Source: a virus
Strand: one strand, 5' to 3'
Length of the DNA: 64,000 nucleotides
IMG/VR virus record: IMGVR_UViG_3300044980_000010
Coordinates: 39,947 to 103,946 of that record
Part shown: one piece after another, positions 5,391 through 60,333 of the stretch
Position numbering within the stretch: the first letter of the stretch is position 1
Layout of the letters: every line of letters starts with the position of its first letter
The notes under the pieces: generated by a model
Told to the model about the DNA's origin: nothing
Databases searched by the model: none
Seen by the model: the letters and a program-made list of their open reading frames with translations, nothing else
Program-made: the position numbers and the translations under genes

Positions 5391-5596
5391 ACGCCAGACA
5401 GCGCACACCAGAGCAGAACGCACGGGTAGAGAGACTGGCGAAGGACTTGCATCGCCACTACCGCGCCGGAGAGAAGGCGCTAGGACCTCCATGGATGGAA
5501 CGCCCACGACCACGGCTGGGATGCGTGCAGCAAGCAGAAGTACTTCCGGCAGAGAGCCGTCAGAGAACTACGCGGCGTGCTATAATGAAGTTGTGA
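5387..5596 (+). CDS. Small hypothetical protein, possibly frameshifted
   Basis: 69 aa from GTG 5387 (overlap GTGA with the previous gene, AGGAG at 5376-5380). The first ~34 codons look natural (RVERLAKDLHRHYRAGEKA). After about 5490 the +1 frame reads DLHGWNAHDHGWDACSKQKY and ends at TAA 5583-5585; its W/H/D/C spacing looks more like a real phage protein end than the annotated frame (PPWMERPRPRLG). An indel, or a +1 shift near CTA-GGA at 5481-5486, would join them. Confidence 0.4.
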   Translation: MNARQRTPEQNARVERLAKDLHRHYRAGEKALGPPWMERPRPRLGCVQQAEVLPAESRQRTTRRAIMKL

Positions 5597-5603
5597 GGAG
5601 TAG

Positions 5604-5963
5604 ATGAAGAACCGTAAGAGTTGGAGACGTAAGAGGTGTGAAGGGTGCAAGAAGAAGTTCTGGGTGAGACTGTGCTACTTGCGCCGAAGGTGGAACGCCG
5701 GAAGATTTTGCAGCATACCATGCAGATCAAAGAAGCCACGCCTTTCGGAGTTGAGCAAGAAGATAGGAAAGAAAGTCGCAAGGCAGTACCGCCAGAAGGA
5801 ACTGTTTCAGAAAACTAGGATAAACGCTCTTAGGAGGCTAGTGCTACAACTCGGTAGCAAGGCTAGGAAGTTCTTCAACGTGAAGTGCAAGGTGTGTAAT
5901 CAACTAGAATACGTGGAACGATGCTTCGGAGTTCGTAAGCACAGCGTAATCTGGAGAGGATAA
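5604..5963 (+). CDS. Basic zinc-finger-like protein of unknown function
   Basis: 119 aa preceded by GTGAGGAGT. Strongly basic, with RRKRCEGCKKKFW, FCSIPCRSKK and CKVCNQLEYVERCF: three Cys pairs suggesting one or two zinc sites and DNA or RNA binding. HNH endonucleases often begin with such a module, but no H-N-H core is present, so it may be a remnant of a homing-type gene or an independent DNA-binding protein. Confidence 0.6.
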   Translation: MKNRKSWRRKRCEGCKKKFWVRLCYLRRRWNAGRFCSIPCRSKKPRLSELSKKIGKKVARQYRQKELFQKTRINALRRLVLQLGSKARKFFNVKCKVCNQLEYVERCFGVRKHSVIWRG

Positions 5964-5967
5964 ATAT

Positions 5968-6552
5968 ATGCGTATTGGGATAGATTGCGACGACGTGTGT
6001 TGTGATTTCCAGAGTTCCTACGTGGCTCTGTTGAATAGGATTTTCGGGAAACCTCCATTGGGGACAGCACCCATTGACTGGGAAGGTTCCAATCTTCAAC
6101 TGAACGCAGAGGAAACAGCACGGTCATGGGCTGAGGTTGCCAAAGTGAAGAACTTCTGGTCAACTCTTGCCCCTCTCCCTTCTTTCGATACAGAGACCAT
6201 CAGGTTGCTACAGACTGCGTTAACTCTGCATGACGTGTTCTTCGTAACCAACCGCTTCGAGACACCGGGAGCCAGCCCGTTGAAGCAGACGAAGTACTGG
6301 CTGTACATCAACGCTTACATCCAAGCGCCAAACGTGCTGATCGCCAAGGACAAAGGCCCCATGGCTTCAGTCCTGCAACTCGATGCCTTCATCGACGACC
6401 GTCCGAAGAACTGCATCGACGTGCTGGCTGCGCGGCCTGCCTGCAAGATTTATCTGGCCGACTCCTCGCACAACCAAGCCTTCAACGATCCGCGCTTCCC
6501 GCGTGTGAAAGACCTGAAGGAGTTCTTGAAGCTGATCTTGGAGGCTAACTAA
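5968..6552 (+). CDS. HAD-superfamily 5'-nucleotidase-like protein
   Basis: 194 aa. MRIGIDCDDVCCDF has the DxD nucleophile pair (D6, D8); FFVTNR is motif II and FIDDRPKN near residue 145 is motif IV. These are the landmarks of the 5'(3')-nucleotidase branch of the HAD fold. It is longer than, and only distantly similar to, the product of 4612-5058, so the phage carries two such enzymes, perhaps with different nucleotide preferences (inference). Confidence 0.75.
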   Translation: MRIGIDCDDVCCDFQSSYVALLNRIFGKPPLGTAPIDWEGSNLQLNAEETARSWAEVAKVKNFWSTLAPLPSFDTETIRLLQTALTLHDVFFVTNRFETPGASPLKQTKYWLYINAYIQAPNVLIAKDKGPMASVLQLDAFIDDRPKNCIDVLAARPACKIYLADSSHNQAFNDPRFPRVKDLKEFLKLILEAN

Positions 6553-11068: not shown

Positions 11069-11144
11069 TGGTAGGCATGGATGGGATCGAACCACCAACC
11101 AGTGGAATCAGAGTCCACCGTTCTGCCAGTTGAACTACATGCCT
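11069..11144 (-). tRNA. tRNA-Gln (CTG)
   Basis: Acceptor AGGCATG/CATGCCT, anticodon arm GTGGA-CTCTGAT-TCCAC (anticodon CTG), T-loop TTCGATC, discriminator A and encoded CCA. It follows tRNA-Phe in the same direction. Confidence 0.92.
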
Positions 11145-11145
11145 G

Positions 11146-11221
11146 TGGTGGGGATGGATGGAATCGAACCACCGACGCGCAGCTTTTCAGACTGCCGCTC
11201 TACCAACTGAGCTACATCCCC
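11146..11221 (-). tRNA. tRNA-Phe (GAA)
   Basis: Acceptor GGGGATG/CATCCCC, D-arm GCTC...GAGC, anticodon loop CTGAAAA (anticodon GAA), T-loop TTCGATT, discriminator A and encoded CCA. One base separates it from tRNA-Gln. Confidence 0.93.
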
Positions 11222-15790: not shown

Positions 15791-17421
15791 GCTCTCCATT
15801 TGCCGTTCTTCATAGTAACCACTGTGCGCTGCCCGTTTGGGTACTGAATCACGTGACTCCACGACCAGCTTGAAGGCCCCATCGTATAGTCCCAGTCCTG
15901 TGTCAGCTTTGTGGAAGTTCCCGCCACGAAAAGTCCGTGATAGATTCCTGCTGCATGGGTGTGGGCTGTGGTAGCTTTCTTTCCTATTTTTGAAAGACTT
16001 GCTGGGTTGCCGAACATACCGTTCGGACCAAGATGGCCATGACAGCCTAACTCTACTTCACCCACTGTGAAGGACTCATCAGGCAGCAAGAACGCTACTG
16101 CTCCCGGCTTCATTCCCGCTTCCTTCTCCATCACAAACTTCACGAGGTTCACGTTCTTAGCGGACTTCATCTTCTTCAGTTCTTTGAACATGAAGGTCTG
16201 CATACGTAAGAACACTTCGGTGTTTGGTGGATCGACGCGGTAGTCGTACTCTTGCAACCATGCCTTCAACCACGCACGGTCGTGATTCGCGTCTGGGGCG
16301 ACGGTCTTGCACCATGGACGAAGATACTGCTCAAGAACTTCTCTCGTGCGCTTGAACTCTTCCTCCACCCTGTGCAACCCACGCAGCCAGACAGTGAACT
16401 TCTCGTGGATGGCTTTGTGCTTCCGGTTGTGTCTGTTGAAGCCTGCCCCTTCAAAAAGATCATGGAGGAACTGGTACTCAGGTCTGAGTGCGTCCAACAT
16501 TTGCACAGATGCTTCTACCACTGCGGGGTGTGACATTGTTGCGTGCAGATCACCCCAAGTGATCGCAGAGACTCGGGCATCAGTTGCCACGACTTCTCCG
16601 TCTTTGATGCGAACATTCAAGTCTTGAATCTCTTTGCCGTTTTTCCTTGCGGCGACTTGTCGCACCCACCAGTTGCCGTCTGCATCGACCTCTACAACGA
16701 GGCACGCATAGCGGTGATGGTGTTCAGCTTTGATTCCCAGTTTCTTTTGCAGGTAGTTCATCAGTGTGACTGCGCCCGTCGTGTAGATCATCTTCACTGG
16801 AGTTCCCGGCATGGTTGCAATGGACCGCATCTCAATCTTCGTGTGAGGGAAGATAATGCTTGATGCGCCTTCATAGGTCTCCAGACCTGAGATCGGGTTG
16901 TCTTCCGTAGGAAGGATGTTCATGTTGCCACACCACTTCAACCCCGGTGCCAACTCCCGGCGTGCGTCACTGATGTAAGGCTTGATCGCTGGGTCAAACC
17001 ACAGTTCATCCTCGTACGGCCTCTTCGTGCCGTTCTTGACGGCCAAGTTTCCAAAGTTGTTCTGGTTGTACGAGAAGGTTCCCACCAGAATCTTTGCGTC
17101 GTAATACTTCGACAAGGCCAAGACGTTTTTCCAAAAATCTTCATGGACAAACGTGTTGTTCTGAGCAGAGGTCAGAATGTATCTCTTCACTCCCCCAGAG
17201 TTCGGTAACGTTTCTTTGATTTCAGCCGCACGTTGCTTACCGCCTGCAATGGGCTTTTTGATGCCCAGCTTTTGGAGGTGGTGCCACACAGTGCTGCGAG
17301 CCAGCCCTGCGGCTCTCGCAATCTCCGGCACTTTGCCAGCATACCGATCATACAGTTCGGCCACCTTCTTGCGTTGTTCCTCGCCGTGCTGCTGGTGCTT
17401 ACTCTTCTTTTCCTGCTTCAT
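15787..17421 (-). CDS. HTH-metallophosphoesterase fusion protein
   Basis: 544 aa from ATG 17421 (AAGGA 4 bases upstream). The GTG at 17448 lies at the predicted transcription start of the promoter at 17455-17483 and would be leaderless. Residues ~29-51 (VPEIARAAGLARSTVWHHLQ) form a helix-turn-helix. The calcineurin-type phosphoesterase set appears in order: D291/H293 (WGDLH), D321 (HDLFEG), N379-H380 (DANHDRAW), H461/H463 (GCHGHLG), H487/H489 (AHTHAAG). This would bind two metals and cut phosphodiester bonds, DNA being plausible given the HTH. Recognition is from motifs; substrate unknown. Confidence 0.78.
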   Translation of the reverse strand: MKQEKKSKHQQHGEEQRKKVAELYDRYAGKVPEIARAAGLARSTVWHHLQKLGIKKPIAGGKQRAAEIKETLPNSGGVKRYILTSAQNNTFVHEDFWKNVLALSKYYDAKILVGTFSYNQNNFGNLAVKNGTKRPYEDELWFDPAIKPYISDARRELAPGLKWCGNMNILPTEDNPISGLETYEGASSIIFPHTKIEMRSIATMPGTPVKMIYTTGAVTLMNYLQKKLGIKAEHHHRYACLVVEVDADGNWWVRQVAARKNGKEIQDLNVRIKDGEVVATDARVSAITWGDLHATMSHPAVVEASVQMLDALRPEYQFLHDLFEGAGFNRHNRKHKAIHEKFTVWLRGLHRVEEEFKRTREVLEQYLRPWCKTVAPDANHDRAWLKAWLQEYDYRVDPPNTEVFLRMQTFMFKELKKMKSAKNVNLVKFVMEKEAGMKPGAVAFLLPDESFTVGEVELGCHGHLGPNGMFGNPASLSKIGKKATTAHTHAAGIYHGLFVAGTSTKLTQDWDYTMGPSSWSWSHVIQYPNGQRTVVTMKNGKWRA

Positions 17422-17454
17422 CGCGTCCTTAAAGTTGAGATATGCCACGTGTTG

Positions 17455-17483
17455 AGTATACCACGACTCGTGTTGGGTGTCAA
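17455..17483 (-). promoter_or_regulatory. Sigma70 promoter for the HTH-phosphoesterase gene
   Basis: On the - strand TTGACA (17483-17478), a 17-base spacer and TATACT (17460-17455): both boxes near-perfect with ideal spacing. Transcription would start around 17448, 27 bases before ATG 17421. It has the same -35, spacer length and -10 as the promoter at 60305-60333. Confidence 0.88.
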
Positions 17484-17487
17484 CGCC

Positions 17488-17835
17488 TTATTTCTTAGCT
17501 GTGCGGCGTCTGCGGATTGGCTGAACCATTGCTGCTTTCAAGTACCCTGTCTGTTCGGCAAGGTCTAACCGTACTCCGTCTAGGGCCGCTACGGTCTTTC
17601 CCAGCAGTTCTATCTGTTGCACTCCCTGCGATTGCAGCGTTGTGAGGCAGTTGGTACGCTGCTGCACCAGTTCGGCGTGAATAGAGGCTTGTTCAGTTTT
17701 CATGTTATCCCATTCCTTACGAACCTTCCTCACAGGCCACAGAAGAATAGCCATAGTAGCTCCCACCAAAATACTTACGGCTACCTTGTTCAACATTTGC
17801 AATAATTCTGGATTAAGCATTAGATTTGTGTCCAT
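17488..17835 (-). CDS. Small membrane protein with coiled-coil tail
   Basis: 115 aa if started at ATG 17835 (MDTNLMLNPEL); a second ATG at 17820 overlaps the upstream stop and cannot be excluded. One TM helix (VAVSILVGATMAILLW, about residues 17-32) is followed by a charged, Gln-rich helix and a basic RRRR tail. A holin-like or spanin-like accessory is possible; no family recognised. Its stop lies just before the promoter of the next gene. Confidence 0.5.
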   Translation of the reverse strand: MDTNLMLNPELLQMLNKVAVSILVGATMAILLWPVRKVRKEWDNMKTEQASIHAELVQQRTNCLTTLQSQGVQQIELLGKTVAALDGVRLDLAEQTGYLKAAMVQPIRRRRTAKK

Positions 17836-18209
17836 GGCACATCTGTTCCCGGTAGCAATCCTCCCGTAACATCTACGAAGGCTTCCAACTGGTTTCGCAA
17901 GGCAATGACATTCGTCTGTTGTGTAGTAAGAGGGGTTCCTGTTATGGTGCCCCCACCTGACTGCGTGCCATACGTGTAGCTCCATGCCCCGGTAGAGAGG
18001 TTGAACTGCACTGTAAGAGTGTAGCCATTTGCCAAAGCAGCAGGGCCTTGATTAAGGGAGTTGCCCACCAACGCTGTGCCTATTTTGTAGGTAACCGTCA
18101 GTGCTCTTGATTGAAAATCATACAGACAGCTTGTGGCTGCTCCTATCGTGTCTGTTTCTGTAACCCCATTGATTGTGAAAGATACTGGAGTAGTCAATGT
18201 TATACTCAT
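17820..18209 (-). CDS. Beta-rich virion-associated protein candidate
   Basis: 129 aa; ATG overlaps the stop of the fibre gene upstream (TAATG). Ser/Thr/Gly-rich with alternating strands (MSITLTTPVSFTINGV, YTLTVQFNLSTGAWSYTYG) and a C-terminal helix. Coupling to the fibre gene suggests a fibre chaperone, cap or neck component (inference). Confidence 0.5.
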   Translation of the reverse strand: MSITLTTPVSFTINGVTETDTIGAATSCLYDFQSRALTVTYKIGTALVGNSLNQGPAALANGYTLTVQFNLSTGAWSYTYGTQSGGGTITGTPLTTQQTNVIALRNQLEAFVDVTGGLLPGTDVPWTQI

Positions 18210-20056
18210 TACAGGGCCTCACATTTCAAGTGTGCTGAAAAGGTTGCTGTACCAACTGTGCCTGTTAAAGCGATGGCGTATTGAATAGCAACACCTGTCT
18301 TTGCGTAAATGATGATTTCACCATTCAACGTTGAAGTGGTTGTGTTACCGCTGTTGCTTGTTGCCGATGCGCCTGCCTGCGTTGCTAACTGCATCACATC
18401 CGATTGTGCCACCGAATCGTCACCGTCAGTATATGTAATAGTGATTGGACCTAAAACCGGACTGGTCCCCGTGTGGGTGATCTTCAGCCTCGTTGATATA
18501 CGAAACATTCCTGTAACGGTCGGAGTGTAAAGCGTGGTTGCCGAGATAGCCGCAACCTGTCCTGTCAAATCAACCGTTGCCAGTTCAGATGGCACGCCAC
18601 CTGATACCGTCGCAATGTTGTTGTATTTGGTGATTGTTCCGCTTGCGTTGGCAAGTGTAATCTTTCCTACGCTACCGACCCCACCTCCAATGGTTACGTC
18701 AAAATTACCAGACACACTAGAGCTTGAGAACCTAGCAACTTCGGACCCACCGGACACAATGCCTACTTGATTGGTATTTCCTCCACCACCCGGACCAACT
18801 CCCCCAGTTCCTCCCGCCCATCCATACACGCCTAGGGTAGCGGGAGAGACGATCTTAGCAACGCCTATCGATCCGCTGTGCGTGATGTTAAGGCTAGGTA
18901 CTCCGTTCGTCCCAGCAGCAAGAGAAGAACCTATAGACCAAGTATCTTGTGCTGACGCTGAACCGTTCCAGTACTGACTTCCCAATTCTATTAGGGGAGA
19001 TGCGTTGGTAGTCCCTGAGGTAGCGACTGTTGTGTTGTTCCACAGCCAAATTGCATTTGAAGTTTGATTAAAAGTGGTAGTGAAAGCTGCATTCGATAAG
19101 GTTAGGTTGGCTCCGGCGTTGCCTAAAGCTGACCATAATACAGAACCCGATGGAGGTGTAGGTGTAGTTCCTGCAATATCTGCATAGTTTACCTGCGCCC
19201 ATGCTGGAGCAGCAGATATTGTACCATTCCCTGTTTGACTAAGGTACATCTTTGTAGCTGTGGTGTTACCTGCCAAACGCGCTGTAGCAGGTGTTGCGTT
19301 TTCATAAATTATGTCGCCCAGCGTTGTCAGCAAAGAGGTAGCTATGTAAGGAAGCGTTGGCACATCTGCCGCCACCAGTGATCTGTAAGCTGGCGCTCCA
19401 GTGCCGCTTGTAGGCCCTGCCAACACAGAGTTCTGCGCTGCGTTACTCAAAGAAAAAGACAACGCAGGAGTCGTAGCAGATGTAGCTACAGATGTTGTGA
19501 ACAAGGGGCTAAGGCTGCCTGCACTGAACGATGTAACGGTCCCTGATCCAAAACCTGAAATAGCTGAGGCAAGAACTACCGCCCCAGTGCCAGTTACTCC
19601 GTTTGACAAGTCTGAGGCTGATGGTTGAGTTTGTGTAAACACCCCAGTGCTGGAAGTGTACGATGTTAAGAATTGGTGGGATACGGCTGCAATCGTCACA
19701 GGAAGCTGCGGAGTACCTGATATGTCGCTGTACGCTGGTTGCGAAGCTGTGAACATCCCTGTAGTGGAATCATAGCTGCTTAACCAGTTTGAGGTCACCT
19801 CTGCTTTTGTGATTGGCAACTGGGGCGTACCGCTTATCTGAGCGTAGGAATAGTCACCAATCTGCGCTATGACTGCTCCGGTGCGTCCGAATACTGAGGT
19901 AACTGCCCCACCGCCTGTTCCTATAGCTGCATCCGCTAGTACAAAGTTCTCTGCAATTATAGGGTCCATACCTATGATTGTAAACCCTACGTTTAGTGTT
20001 TTTGGGTTTGAACTTTGAACGTAGTATGATGGTAGTCCATCGTAGCCTTGTGGCAT
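18209..20056 (-). CDS. Tail fibre / receptor-binding protein candidate
   Basis: 615 aa, very rich in Gly, Ser, Thr and Ala. The segment VTSVFGRTGAV...GDYSYAQISGTPQLP, and its partial repeat DISGTPQLP 41 residues later, is typical of phage tail fibre shafts. A Gly-rich stretch (GGTGGVGPGGGGN) near residue 425 and a beta-rich C-terminal domain follow. It would form a trimeric shaft with a C-terminal adhesin. A second, unrelated-looking fibre gene is at 40016-42034. Confidence 0.7.
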   Translation of the reverse strand: MPQGYDGLPSYYVQSSNPKTLNVGFTIIGMDPIIAENFVLADAAIGTGGGAVTSVFGRTGAVIAQIGDYSYAQISGTPQLPITKAEVTSNWLSSYDSTTGMFTASQPAYSDISGTPQLPVTIAAVSHQFLTSYTSSTGVFTQTQPSASDLSNGVTGTGAVVLASAISGFGSGTVTSFSAGSLSPLFTTSVATSATTPALSFSLSNAAQNSVLAGPTSGTGAPAYRSLVAADVPTLPYIATSLLTTLGDIIYENATPATARLAGNTTATKMYLSQTGNGTISAAPAWAQVNYADIAGTTPTPPSGSVLWSALGNAGANLTLSNAAFTTTFNQTSNAIWLWNNTTVATSGTTNASPLIELGSQYWNGSASAQDTWSIGSSLAAGTNGVPSLNITHSGSIGVAKIVSPATLGVYGWAGGTGGVGPGGGGNTNQVGIVSGGSEVARFSSSSVSGNFDVTIGGGVGSVGKITLANASGTITKYNNIATVSGGVPSELATVDLTGQVAAISATTLYTPTVTGMFRISTRLKITHTGTSPVLGPITITYTDGDDSVAQSDVMQLATQAGASATSNSGNTTTSTLNGEIIIYAKTGVAIQYAIALTGTVGTATFSAHLKCEAL

Positions 20057-36497: not shown

Positions 36498-37211
36498 TTA
36501 TTTCTTCGCAGTCACTTCGACCGCGAAAACTCGATAGAACTCTTTGATCTTGTCCGCAGTGCTGTACTTCGTTCCGCCGTTAGGCTCAAAGTAGATGCAC
36601 CATGCAAACGTCCCCGGCACAGGCTCTCGGCGGATGCGTGTTGCAACCCGTCCCGGCACTGTGCGCTTGTCGATACTTGGTAAGGTCCGGCACACAGTCA
36701 CGTAATAACGAGGATCGCACGTTAGAGTGACCTCGTACTTGTACAGTGTTCCTGCCACCCAGCCTTCGTCGTAGTTGTCATTTGGCAACGGTTCACTTGC
36801 TACCAACTCCATGCCGATCCTGTTCAGCCAGTAGGCGAACCCGCTAGGTACAAAGTATGGGCGCTGCGGGTTTGGTCTGTGTCCATCCGCTCCGGTGAAC
36901 ACATTGTTCTCGTAGCCGGACGCCAGAAGCAGGGCTGGGTCTAAGACCACATCGTCGTCCAGCTTCAGCATGAAATCGTAGCCTTCGGCCACTGCCCACT
37001 TCGCAATGCTCTGTACTTTCTCTGGGAGACCTTGGTATGAGTCGTCGCAGTCCAGAACTACTTCTCCGGGTGAGTAAACTGAGTCTCCGCGACCTAGAAA
37101 GAAGCGCACGTCAGTTCCCTGCGGAACCAAAGGCAACCACGTTCTTCGTATCGCTTCTTGCCACTCTTTTCTTACGTGGCAACTAACTACTGCAATCAAA
37201 CTTCGCGCCAT
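36498..37211 (-). CDS. Glycosyltransferase, GT31-like
   Basis: 237 aa from MARSLIAVVSC (GGAGGAGG upstream). IRRTWLPL near residue 22, VRFFLGRGD, and MLKLDDDVVL (DDD 85-87) reproduce the order of the beta-1,3-galactosyltransferase family GT31: an R-x-TW segment, an FxxG segment and a DxD metal/nucleotide-sugar site. FVPSGFAYWLNR is the acceptor-side block. It is a paralogue of the product of 37196-38155 and of the C-terminal half of 38152-39696. It may decorate host surface, phage DNA or virion protein (inference). Confidence 0.75.
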   Translation of the reverse strand: MARSLIAVVSCHVRKEWQEAIRRTWLPLVPQGTDVRFFLGRGDSVYSPGEVVLDCDDSYQGLPEKVQSIAKWAVAEGYDFMLKLDDDVVLDPALLLASGYENNVFTGADGHRPNPQRPYFVPSGFAYWLNRIGMELVASEPLPNDNYDEGWVAGTLYKYEVTLTCDPRYYVTVCRTLPSIDKRTVPGRVATRIRREPVPGTFAWCIYFEPNGGTKYSTADKIKEFYRVFAVEVTAKK

Positions 37212-38155
37212 GATCCTCCTCCGAAACATCTCCGGTCAAACCAGACGATACTCGGATCGGCGTAAACCTTTCGGAACTCAGCAATCACTTCCTCCGGTGG
37301 AGTGCAGTGGTAGCCTTTCCAAACAAGGTGCATGCAAAACGCAAATGTGCCGGGAGTAGCTTGCACCTCTGTGAACTTGCTTCGCACCAGCCATCCGTCT
37401 TTACGGTGTGCCTCATTTGGCGACACTGACATTCCAGACGGTGAAGGTTCCGTGAGTGGGACAAGAGTTCGTTCGCGTACAGATCGAACCCTTCCGAGTC
37501 GTCCAGCCCTTGGTACTATGTGTTGAACTTCTTTCCAGACGTACTGTGTGTTGAGCGGTGCCTCTTGCGGCATCGGCTCCTCTGGATTGTAGCCTGTGTG
37601 GATGAAGTAGCGATTGTCGTGGAACATGTTTATTCCCTGTTCCCCAAGCACATGCGCTACCCAGCACTCATCGTTGCGACCATGCGCTGGCAAAGCTGCG
37701 TCACGTAGAAGAGCCATGCCTTTGCGACTGACCCAATAGCAGAATCCCCAAGGTGTGATGTACTTGCCTGTGGTCTGTCTGCAATCATTTCGTCCGCAGG
37801 TGCTGCACGTATCTTTGTGGAAATCGCCGTTGTCGCTGCCAACAAAATCATGCTGCTCAAAACCTGAGGCTAGCAACTCCGTGGGCTTGACCACAACATC
37901 GTCGTCGCACTTCAAAAAGTAGTCGTACCCGTTATCGTAGGCCCACCGAGCAACGGCTCTGACTTTTTCAATCAGCCCGTTATAAGTGTCGTCCACAGGT
38001 AAGAAAACCTCGTCGCCATTCATGTGCTCGCAGCCCTCTGTTCCAAGGAAGAACCTGTAGTCCACTCCTTTTGGCAACTGCGTAAGCCACGTCTCTCTGA
38101 TCACATCGCGCATCTGAGATTTGCTATGTGAAATGATCGCAATCAGTGGCTTCAT
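37196..38155 (-). CDS. Glycosyltransferase, GT31-like (longer paralogue)
   Basis: 319 aa. MKPLIAIISHSKSQMRDVIR-ETW, VDYRFFLG, then FLKCDDDVVVK with DDD at 84-86, and TPWGFCYWVSRKGM. A Cys-rich insert (TCSTCGRNDCRQ) after the DxD could bind zinc. Its start overlaps the previous stop (ATGA) and its end overlaps the next GT by 16 bases, so the three genes are translationally coupled. Confidence 0.78.
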   Translation of the reverse strand: MKPLIAIISHSKSQMRDVIRETWLTQLPKGVDYRFFLGTEGCEHMNGDEVFLPVDDTYNGLIEKVRAVARWAYDNGYDYFLKCDDDVVVKPTELLASGFEQHDFVGSDNGDFHKDTCSTCGRNDCRQTTGKYITPWGFCYWVSRKGMALLRDAALPAHGRNDECWVAHVLGEQGINMFHDNRYFIHTGYNPEEPMPQEAPLNTQYVWKEVQHIVPRAGRLGRVRSVRERTLVPLTEPSPSGMSVSPNEAHRKDGWLVRSKFTEVQATPGTFAFCMHLVWKGYHCTPPEEVIAEFRKVYADPSIVWFDRRCFGGGSWREV

Positions 38156-59076: not shown

Positions 59077-59152
59077 TGGCTGGCCCCAGAGGTCTCGAAC
59101 CTCCACCACACGTGTTAACAGCACGTTGCTCTGCCGATTAAGCTAGAGGCCA
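59077..59152 (-). tRNA. tRNA-Asn (GTT)
   Basis: Acceptor TGGCCTC/GGGGCCA, D-arm GCTT...GAGC, anticodon arm ACGTG-CTGTTAA-CACGT (anticodon GTT), T-loop TTCGAGA, discriminator G and encoded CCA. The stop codon of the HNH gene (59143-59145) lies inside its positions 8-10, so the two genes overlap by 10 bases. Confidence 0.93.
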
Positions 59153-59439
59153 TCCTCTACTTCACGATGACAGTTCGCGCAGATAAGAACACATTTCTTC
59201 GCCTCTGCTAAAAGTCTGGACCAACTGTAGGTCAAGCCCTCAGAGCATATCGCAAAAGATTTGTCTTCAGGATTCGTGTGATGAAACTCCAGTGCTCTCC
59301 AACACCTGCTATATCCACAGATGCTGCATTTGCCACCGAACAGTTCCTTCAACTTCCTAATCTTGTTCTTCCTCCACCGCTGAACGTTCTCAGTCAACTT
59401 CTTTTTCTGTTCAGGTGAAGAATCTTTCCATCTAGACAT
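59143..59439 (-). CDS. Small HNH endonuclease within the RNA unit
   Basis: 98 aa. GGKCSICGYSRCWRALEFHH, TNPEDKSF, then CVLICANCHREVED: the C-x2-C...H-H...N...C-x2-C-H pattern of a compact HNH nuclease. The N-terminus is basic. Its start codon lies in a stem (CATCGAA/TTCGATG), which may control translation. Such genes are commonly parasitic elements in tRNAs or introns; here it separates the two structured RNA tracts and ends inside tRNA-Asn. Confidence 0.85.
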   Translation of the reverse strand: MSRWKDSSPEQKKKLTENVQRWRKNKIRKLKELFGGKCSICGYSRCWRALEFHHTNPEDKSFAICSEGLTYSWSRLLAEAKKCVLICANCHREVEDGL

Positions 59440-59798
59440 CGAAACACCTTTCTTCGATGCCTGCCGTCACAGCCACTCGGTTTGAGTCCGAGAACTCACC
59501 ACGCTCCGTTCGTTAGTCGGAGCACTTCAATCTTTGGTCGGCTGGGCGAGGGGCGTGTCTCGCATACGTCCGGCCCATCGCCGGATGCTTACCACATATT
59601 CAGCTACTCAGCCGTCATAAACTTTATCGGTGGATTATTGTACCGTTCGCCACCGTTGACGTGTTTTCCCCTGTCCGCACAGGGCCGCTTAGGTATACAC
59701 GCTTGCAACTCAAACTCTGCCTCGCCTCCTCACGGACTGGCTGGGCGTCAGGCTTCGGCTATGGCGCTTTCACGCGAGCCGTCTGAAGCTAAGACATC
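59440..59798 (-). ncRNA. Structured noncoding region A (large RNA candidate, 5' part)
   Basis: 359 bases without a gene, directly after the 5' half of the permuted tRNA. - strand hairpins include CGGCT-CGC...GCG...AGCCG, CCCTGT-GCGG-ACAGGG, CGGTGG/CCACCG, GCAT-TCCGGC...GCCGGA-ATGC, GCGAG/CTCGC, GCTCCG/CGGAGC and CTCGG-ACTCAAA-CCGAG. CGCCCAGCC occurs twice. I could not build a group I intron core (P, Q, R, S elements) from it. RNA identity unknown. Confidence 0.6.
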
Positions 59799-59923
59799 AA
59801 GGGGAATGCTCTACCAGACTGAGCTACGTCGCGCATCCGCGAGTCCGCGTTGCTCTCGCTTTAACGGGAGACATTGGATGCTGGAGGCGACGACAGGATT
59901 TGAACCTGCGACCTTTCCCAGAT
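59799..59923 (-). tRNA. Circularly permuted tRNA (3' half precedes 5' half)
   Basis: On the - strand the first part (59923-59882) reads ATCT-GGGAA, AGGTC, T-arm GCAGG-TTCAAAT-CCTGT, CGTCGCC, T, CCA: a complete tRNA 3' half. A 48-base linker follows, and then (59833-59799) CGCGACG-TA, D-arm GCTC-AGTCTGGTA-GAGC, A, TTCCC-CTT: a complete 5' half. GCGACG pairs with CGTCGC (position 1-72 is C-C) and TTCCC with GGGAA. The linker closes itself by GCATCC/GGATGC and GCGAG/CTCGC. If the break is sealed by joining CTT to ATCT, the loop is CTTATCT (anticodon TAT). GACCA-GAAA-TGGTC-AACG precedes the 3' half. Confidence 0.72.
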
Positions 59924-59947
59924 CGTTGACCATTTCTGGTCGAACTT

Positions 59948-60021
59948 TGGTGGACCCTAAGGGAATCGAACCCATATTCGCCGCGTGCAAGGCGGCAGTC
60001 CTCCCGTTAAACGAAAGGCCC
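59948..60021 (-). tRNA. tRNA-Ala (TGC)
   Basis: Acceptor GGGCCTT/AGGGTCC, anticodon arm GCCGC-CTTGCAC-GCGGC (anticodon TGC), T-loop TTCGATT, discriminator A and encoded CCA. D-stem GTTT/GGAC uses wobble pairs. Only 24 bases separate its CCA end from the permuted tRNA. Confidence 0.9.
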
Positions 60022-60304: not shown

Positions 60305-60333
60305 AGTATACAGCCAGCCACCATCATTGTCAA
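60305..60333 (-). promoter_or_regulatory. Sigma70 promoter of the tRNA/ncRNA unit
   Basis: TTGACA (60333-60328), a 17-base spacer and TATACT (60310-60305) on the - strand, identical in boxes and spacing to the promoter at 17455-17483. It faces tRNA-Ala, the permuted tRNA and the structured RNA, and is divergent to the + strand promoter at 60474. Confidence 0.9.

What the first reader, a model, noticed from the sequence alone, without database searches (positions are those of the whole stretch)
59799..59923. Circularly permuted tRNA gene in a phage
Seen: on the - strand a complete tRNA 3' half (T-arm, acceptor strand, CCA) is followed after 48 bases by a complete 5' half (acceptor strand, D-arm, anticodon stem). 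Both stems that must bridge the halves are complementary: GCGACG/CGTCGC (acceptor) and TTCCC/GGGAA (anticodon). The linker has its own stems. Known: permuted tRNA genes exist in some algae and archaea, where circular precursors are processed by splicing then RNase P/tRNase Z. Bacterial permutation is known for tmRNA. A phage copy implies a circular RNA intermediate or RNA ligation. Inference: a permuted intron-exon arrangement could do this, since joining after U34 (CTT) and after a G (AACG|ATCT) gives a 7-base loop and obeys group I splice-site rules; GACCA-GAAA-TGGTC resembles a P9 hairpin. The group I core was not found.
Basis: partly seen in the sequence, partly recalled or inferred. Interest (0 to 1): 0.9.

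Follow-up and report, generated by a model that had tools for sequence, protein, structure and literature searches.

The report
Phage RNA with tRNA-mimic module
The "back-to-front tRNA gene" in this phage is a real, conserved RNA structure, but it looks like a tRNA look-alike of the kind found in bacterial Y RNAs rather than a gene that makes a working tRNA, and it is unusual because it lacks the parts that tie Y RNAs to their partner protein Ro.

Summary
On the minus strand at 59802-59919 lies a permuted tRNA body (T-arm, acceptor, D-arm) closed by an anticodon-type stem. It is not chance: four other lineages of the same virus group carry it, a covariance model built without the window finds it at 70 bits (E 5e-19; tandem-tRNA decoys reach at most 27), and 13 of 26 pairs change on both sides across five sequences.

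The layout matches the tRNA-like module of bacterial Y RNAs (YrlA, Rfam RF02553; 34.7 bits here, below the curated cut-off). In other viruses such modules sit beside the Ro (TROVE) gene in 10 of 10 Ro loci examined. A tRNA product is unlikely: the relatives' modules cannot form an anticodon loop with U33, share no anticodon, have no CCA, and carry a conserved hairpin on the acceptor stem.

It is not a full Y RNA either: no Ro-binding basal stem is seen, and no Ro gene was found in this record or 16 relatives (many are fragments). I call it a Ro-less, YrlA-like tRNA mimic in a modular array of small phage RNAs, probably a decoy or dock for tRNA-binding proteins (function inferred). The phage also encodes RtcB and a second RNA ligase.

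The parts
59802..59919 (-). Permuted tRNA-like module M1 (closing stem to closing stem)
59893..59909 (-). T-arm GCAGG-TTCAAAT-CCTGT
59886..59892 (-). acceptor stem, 3' strand CGTCGCC
   Evidence: covarying helix 3
   Evidence: covarying helix 4
59827..59832 (-). acceptor stem, 5' strand GCGACG
59808..59824 (-). D-arm GCTC-AGTCTGGTA-GAGC
59915..59919 (-). closing (anticodon-type) stem, 5' strand GGGAA
   Evidence: covarying helix 1
59802..59806 (-). closing (anticodon-type) stem, 3' strand TTCCC
59928..59941 (-). GACCA-GAAA-TGGTC hairpin just upstream; not seen upstream of the module in the relatives
59948..60021 (-). tRNA-Ala (TGC) directly upstream
60305..60333 (-). promoter-like match TTGACA-17-TATACT (11 of 12), possible promoter of the tRNA-Ala/M1 row
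   Evidence: consensus match only
59715..59798 (-). element E2, possible H-type pseudoknot GTCT/AGAC with GCTTC/GAAGC; similar element in L053, L002 and L030
   Evidence: by eye
59628..59706 (-). element E1a, also in L001, L009 and L053
59535..59616 (-). element E1b, covarying fold with invariant ACCA end
59077..59152 (-). tRNA-Asn (GTT) downstream

Best explanation
It is a phage noncoding RNA whose core is a YrlA-type tRNA mimic: a tRNA elbow (T-arm, D-arm, variable loop, acceptor helix) written in permuted order, with the anticodon stem left open as the base of the module and the acceptor stem capped by a hairpin extension. Shown: anatomy, conservation, compensatory changes, similarity to the YrlA model, absence of a conserved anticodon loop or CCA. 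Inferred: it is co-transcribed with tRNA-Ala, released by tRNA 3' processing, and acts as a folded RNA that tRNA-binding proteins take for a tRNA, as a decoy or docking module, without being charged or translated. In the known bacterial case the module docks PNPase to Ro/Rsr; here no Ro partner or Ro stem was found, so a Ro-independent decoy or dock is the leading guess (about even odds against other uses of tRNA mimicry).
For: YrlA match over exactly this stretch. Five lineages with the same tRNA spacing, 13 of 26 pairs with double-sided changes, leave-one-out model E 5e-19. No U33 or shared anticodon in the relatives. Second module with 2-4 nt acceptor loop in L051 and L008, the compact YrlA shape, 46.5 bits. 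Permuted modules in other viruses go with Ro genes: 15 of 29 records against 2 of 32 controls, and within 1.5 kb in 10 of 10 Ro loci. Forza, a named phage with an annotated Ro-like gene, carries a YrlA match of 52.1 bits that model R1 also finds (46.3 bits).
Against: YrlA score below the curated cut-off (34.7 against 69), and tandem tRNAs reach 27 bits. No Ro stem, no Ro gene. Single-sequence folding not better than shuffles. Only five distinct sequences. Function untested; RtcB and a second ligase leave RNA joining possible.
Confidence: 0.75

Rival explanations
1. Permuted tRNA gene: the precursor is cut and ligated at the anticodon loop (RtcB, an RNA ligase or a permuted intron), RNase P and tRNase Z remove the linker, and a functional tRNA (e.g. 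anticodon UAU) results.
For: In the window alone a 7-base loop with U33 can be written (CTTATCT) and TCCA follows the acceptor. Joined bodies pass ARAGORN in all five lineages. The phage encodes RtcB and an ATP-grasp RNA ligase.
Against: No U33 in any of the four relatives, pyrimidine at 37 in the window, no shared anticodon; no CCA in relatives; acceptor capped by a covarying extension; no group I core; RtcB was found in 1 of 16 relatives' records, one that lacks the module (records are fragments).
Confidence: 0.07
2. A true Ro-binding Y RNA whose Ro protein comes from the host or lies in missing genome, with a divergent basal stem that I failed to recognise.
For: Viral permuted modules usually lie next to Ro genes. 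Forza's YrlA also scores below the Rfam cut-off. The records are incomplete or unproven as complete.
Against: No outer helix beyond the closing stem shared by the five lineages; in L051 and L008 the module begins 4-6 nt after the tRNA-Ala CCA. No TROVE in this 104-kb record or 16 relatives.
Confidence: 0.15
3. Remains of two unrelated decayed tRNAs that happen to stand 3' half before 5' half.
For: It lies in a tRNA region, and tandem tRNAs do give weak YrlA hits (27 bits).
Against: Five lineages keep the same geometry with compensatory changes in the stems that bridge the halves.
Confidence: 0.01
4. Two-piece (permuted) tmRNA.
For: Permuted tmRNA genes also place the acceptor piece first (established knowledge; PMC10085705).
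Against: ARAGORN and Rfam report no tmRNA; the canonical D-arm is unlike tmRNA (own knowledge).
Confidence: 0.02

Closest known systems
YrlA bacterial Y RNA (Rfam RF02553; tRNA-like module, PDB 6CU1 as cited in PMC8394870)
   Same: Permuted order T-arm, acceptor helix, D-arm; closing stem at the anticodon-stem position; size about 120 nt; one module in an RNA that is not a tRNA
   Different: No Ro-binding basal stem, no Ro gene found, long acceptor extension, exact tRNA spacing of the closing stem, tandem copies in two relatives, score half the Rfam cut-off
Ro/YrlA pairs in phages (e.g. Gordonia phage Forza; YrlA in phages mentioned in PMC7765460)
   Same: Permuted tRNA-like module in a phage tRNA array
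   Different: Forza has a Ro-like gene nearby and a short acceptor loop; here neither
Circularly permuted tRNA genes of algae and archaea
   Same: 3' half before 5' half, complementary bridging stems
   Different: No conserved anticodon loop or CCA; acceptor capped; no evidence of a mature tRNA
Permuted (two-piece) tmRNA
   Same: Acceptor piece upstream of the 5' piece
   Different: tmRNA lacks a canonical D-stem and carries a tag reading frame (own knowledge); ARAGORN and Rfam found no tmRNA

Membership tests
YrlA / bacterial Y RNA | tRNA-like module with T-arm, acceptor hairpin, D-arm in that order | tested here: met
YrlA / bacterial Y RNA | Rfam RF02553 score at or above the curated cut-off (69 bits) | tested here: not met
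   34.7 bits; the Ro-associated control in Forza also fails (52.1)
YrlA / bacterial Y RNA | basal stem of the 5' and 3' ends that binds Ro/Rsr | tested here: not met
   no shared outer helix in five lineages (read by eye on the sequences)
YrlA / bacterial Y RNA | Ro/Rsr (TROVE) gene in the genome | tested here: not met
   none in this record or 16 relatives; many records are fragments and the host is unknown
YrlA / bacterial Y RNA | binding of Rsr and PNPase; modification by DusA and TruB | not testable with these tools
   properties from PMC8394870
Circularly permuted tRNA gene | 3' half before 5' half with complementary acceptor and anticodon stems | tested here: met
Circularly permuted tRNA gene | joined halves give an anticodon loop with U33 and a usable anticodon, conserved in relatives | tested here: not met
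   U33 possible only in the window
Circularly permuted tRNA gene | mature or circular tRNA product | not testable with these tools
   no RNA data
Group I permuted intron-exon | group I catalytic core flanking the exons | tested here: not met
   no match; a strongly divergent core is not excluded
tmRNA | tmRNA model or ARAGORN tmRNA match | tested here: not met

The most novel reading that the evidence does not exclude
A Ro-independent class of phage RNAs built on permuted tRNA modules, single or in tandem, with a capped acceptor stem, carried as exchangeable cassettes in phage tRNA arrays and acting as decoys or docks for host tRNA-handling proteins such as anticodon nucleases.
Probability: 0.35. 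Interest if true: 0.72.

Novelty: new variant of a known kind. Interest (0 to 1): 0.52.

Why it matters
Phages are known to carry tRNAs and sometimes Ro with YrlA-like RNAs. A tRNA mimic kept by selection without Ro, an anticodon loop or a CCA end would separate tRNA mimicry from the Ro machine and point to a decoy or docking use in phage infection. It also warns that 'permuted tRNA genes' found in bacteria and phages should first be tested against the Y RNA architecture, which standard annotation misses: no YrlA match over the curated cut-off was reported in any of the 16 viral loci scanned.

Tried and rejected
Group I core: no hit in whole-window, permissive local and whole-record searches. 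Decayed tRNAs: rejected by covariation. tmRNA: no hit. The genome-contig scan with a relaxed pattern was too loose to use. The E1b pattern outside this virus group gave only chance coding matches. A DNA search against named phages found only the tRNA-Asn. A second relative search with the DNA polymerase returned contigs already in hand. The long-loop pattern scan outside the group gave mostly tandem tRNAs. Single-sequence folding is uninformative. Two primary YrlA papers (PMC4201824, PMC6281776) are not held, so YrlA facts come from papers that cite them.

Full report
What is there. The minus strand at 59919-59802 holds a permuted tRNA body: closing (anticodon-type) stem, 5-nt variable loop, T-arm, acceptor 3' strand, a stretch of 53 nt, acceptor 5' strand, D-arm, one base, closing stem. 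ARAGORN calls normal tRNA-Ala (59948-60021) and tRNA-Asn (59077-59152) on either side. The window is part of a 103,946-base IMG/VR record; terminase and A-family DNA polymerase are recognised in it.

It is conserved. Fifty-four viral relatives were fetched with the terminase. Four lineages besides the window carry the module: L051/L075, L008, L053/L087 and L009/L072 (L010 and L011 carry the same one as L009). A descriptor of the permuted body found these five in 857 kb of sequence, plus one false positive between two ordinary tRNAs. On the alignment 94.6% of pair cells are paired and 13 of 26 pairs change on both sides; no shuffle of 500 reaches this and sliding the partner strand destroys it. 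The changes fall mainly in the closing stem, the acceptor and its extension, that is, in the stems that bridge the two halves. A covariance model built from the four relatives alone scores the window 70.1 bits (E 5e-19), while the window's tandem tRNAs reach at most 27 bits. One close relative, L001 (terminase 90% identical), lacks the module: there tRNA-Ala is followed at once, after the shared spacer CCACCAAAGTT, by the next element.

What it resembles. A permissive Rfam scan gives YrlA, the bacterial Y RNA family, over exactly this stretch (34.7 bits; cut-off 69). The YrlA consensus itself runs T-arm, acceptor hairpin, D-arm. The score must be read with care, because tandem tRNAs imitate this order (27 bits at window 11085-11201). 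Two controls help. Gordonia phage Forza carries an annotated Ro-like gene and, in its tRNA array, an unannotated YrlA match of 52.1 bits, also under the cut-off. Ro (TROVE) genes are in 15 of 29 module-bearing records against 2 of 32 control records (the 29 include L344 and L349 and two or three that the ARAGORN filter had scored as tandem), and in all ten Ro loci fetched the module lies within 1.5 kb of the Ro match. So permuted tRNA-like modules in viruses are often Y RNAs. That several phages carry YrlA has been stated before (PMC7765460), and jumbo phages with TROVE proteins are known (PMC7824862).

Why not a tRNA gene. Joining the halves in silico gives a tRNA body in all five lineages, but U33 can be made only in the window, position 37 there is a pyrimidine, and the possible anticodons have nothing in common. 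No relative has CCA after the acceptor. The acceptor is capped by a covarying extension with a shared apical sequence in the four relatives (AGCAGA...GGCGYGG). In L051 and L008 a second module follows whose acceptor loop is 2-4 nt, with no room for tRNA ends. Against my view: the phage encodes RtcB (370.8 bits) and an ATP-grasp RNA ligase, so joining of RNA ends is possible in principle. RtcB turned up in one of 16 relatives' records, and that one lacks the module, but the module-bearing records are short fragments.

Why not simply a Y RNA. The Ro-binding stem of Y RNAs is formed by the RNA ends outside the closing stem. I found no such helix shared by the five lineages; in L051 and L008 the module starts within about six bases of the CCA of tRNA-Ala. 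No TROVE gene was found in the record or in 16 relatives. I therefore do not file it under YrlA, while holding that it works like the tRNA-mimic module of YrlA.

How it may work (inferred). A promoter-like match lies at 60333-60305 on the same strand. The RNA could be released from tRNA-Ala by normal 3' processing. What selection keeps is the tRNA elbow: canonical T- and D-loops, 5-nt variable loop, and perhaps the 15-48 tertiary pair (U-A in L075, G-C elsewhere; read by eye, one instance). What is missing is anticodon and CCA. That suits a decoy or dock for proteins that grip the elbow. For YrlA, docking of PNPase and modification by DusA and TruB are reported (PMC8394870), and competitive inhibition of an anticodon nuclease has been proposed (PMC7790460). 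The two RNA ligases fit a phage that meets RNA-cleaving defences, but nothing here shows which protein is bound.

Surroundings. The module sits in a row of small conserved elements (E2, E1a, E1b) that occur in different combinations in related phages, often joined by AAAGTT. E1b has a fold in which 7 of 19 predicted pairs show double-sided changes, and an invariant ACCA end. This looks like a set of exchangeable RNA cassettes.

Noticed in passing
L353-L356, L359-L361 (viral Ro loci); also L254, L284, L292, L344, L349: Many viral permuted modules carry an anticodon-like stem-loop 5' of the variable loop, with U33 and A37 in all seven Ro-adjacent cases seen (e.g. CGA-TTGTTAA-TCG, CTC-CTGATAA-GAG, CCA-CTTTTAA-TGG): a complete cloverleaf permuted between D-arm and anticodon arm, often preceded by GGTTACTTC (read by eye).
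   Followed up: partly
window 59535-59616 (-): E1b, a second conserved small RNA element with covarying stems and an invariant ACCA end, in at least seven related phages; no Rfam match.
   Followed up: partly
window 59715-59798 (-): E2, a likely H-type pseudoknot whose pairing partners change together in L053 and L030.
   Followed up: no
L009 about 5593-6545: An insertion between E1a and E1b with terminal inverted repeats (GGGAATTATATACTTGACTTCC), flanked by repeated AAAGTTATGGG.
   Followed up: no
G000 17231-18358 and 37049-37555 (same record, outside the window): The phage encodes RtcB and an ATP-grasp RNA ligase, an RNA-repair set.
   Followed up: partly
window 59143-59439 (-): Small ORF with an HNH-endonuclease-like cysteine/histidine pattern (by eye; no Pfam match) ending just before tRNA-Asn; a similar ORF is in L031.
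   Followed up: no
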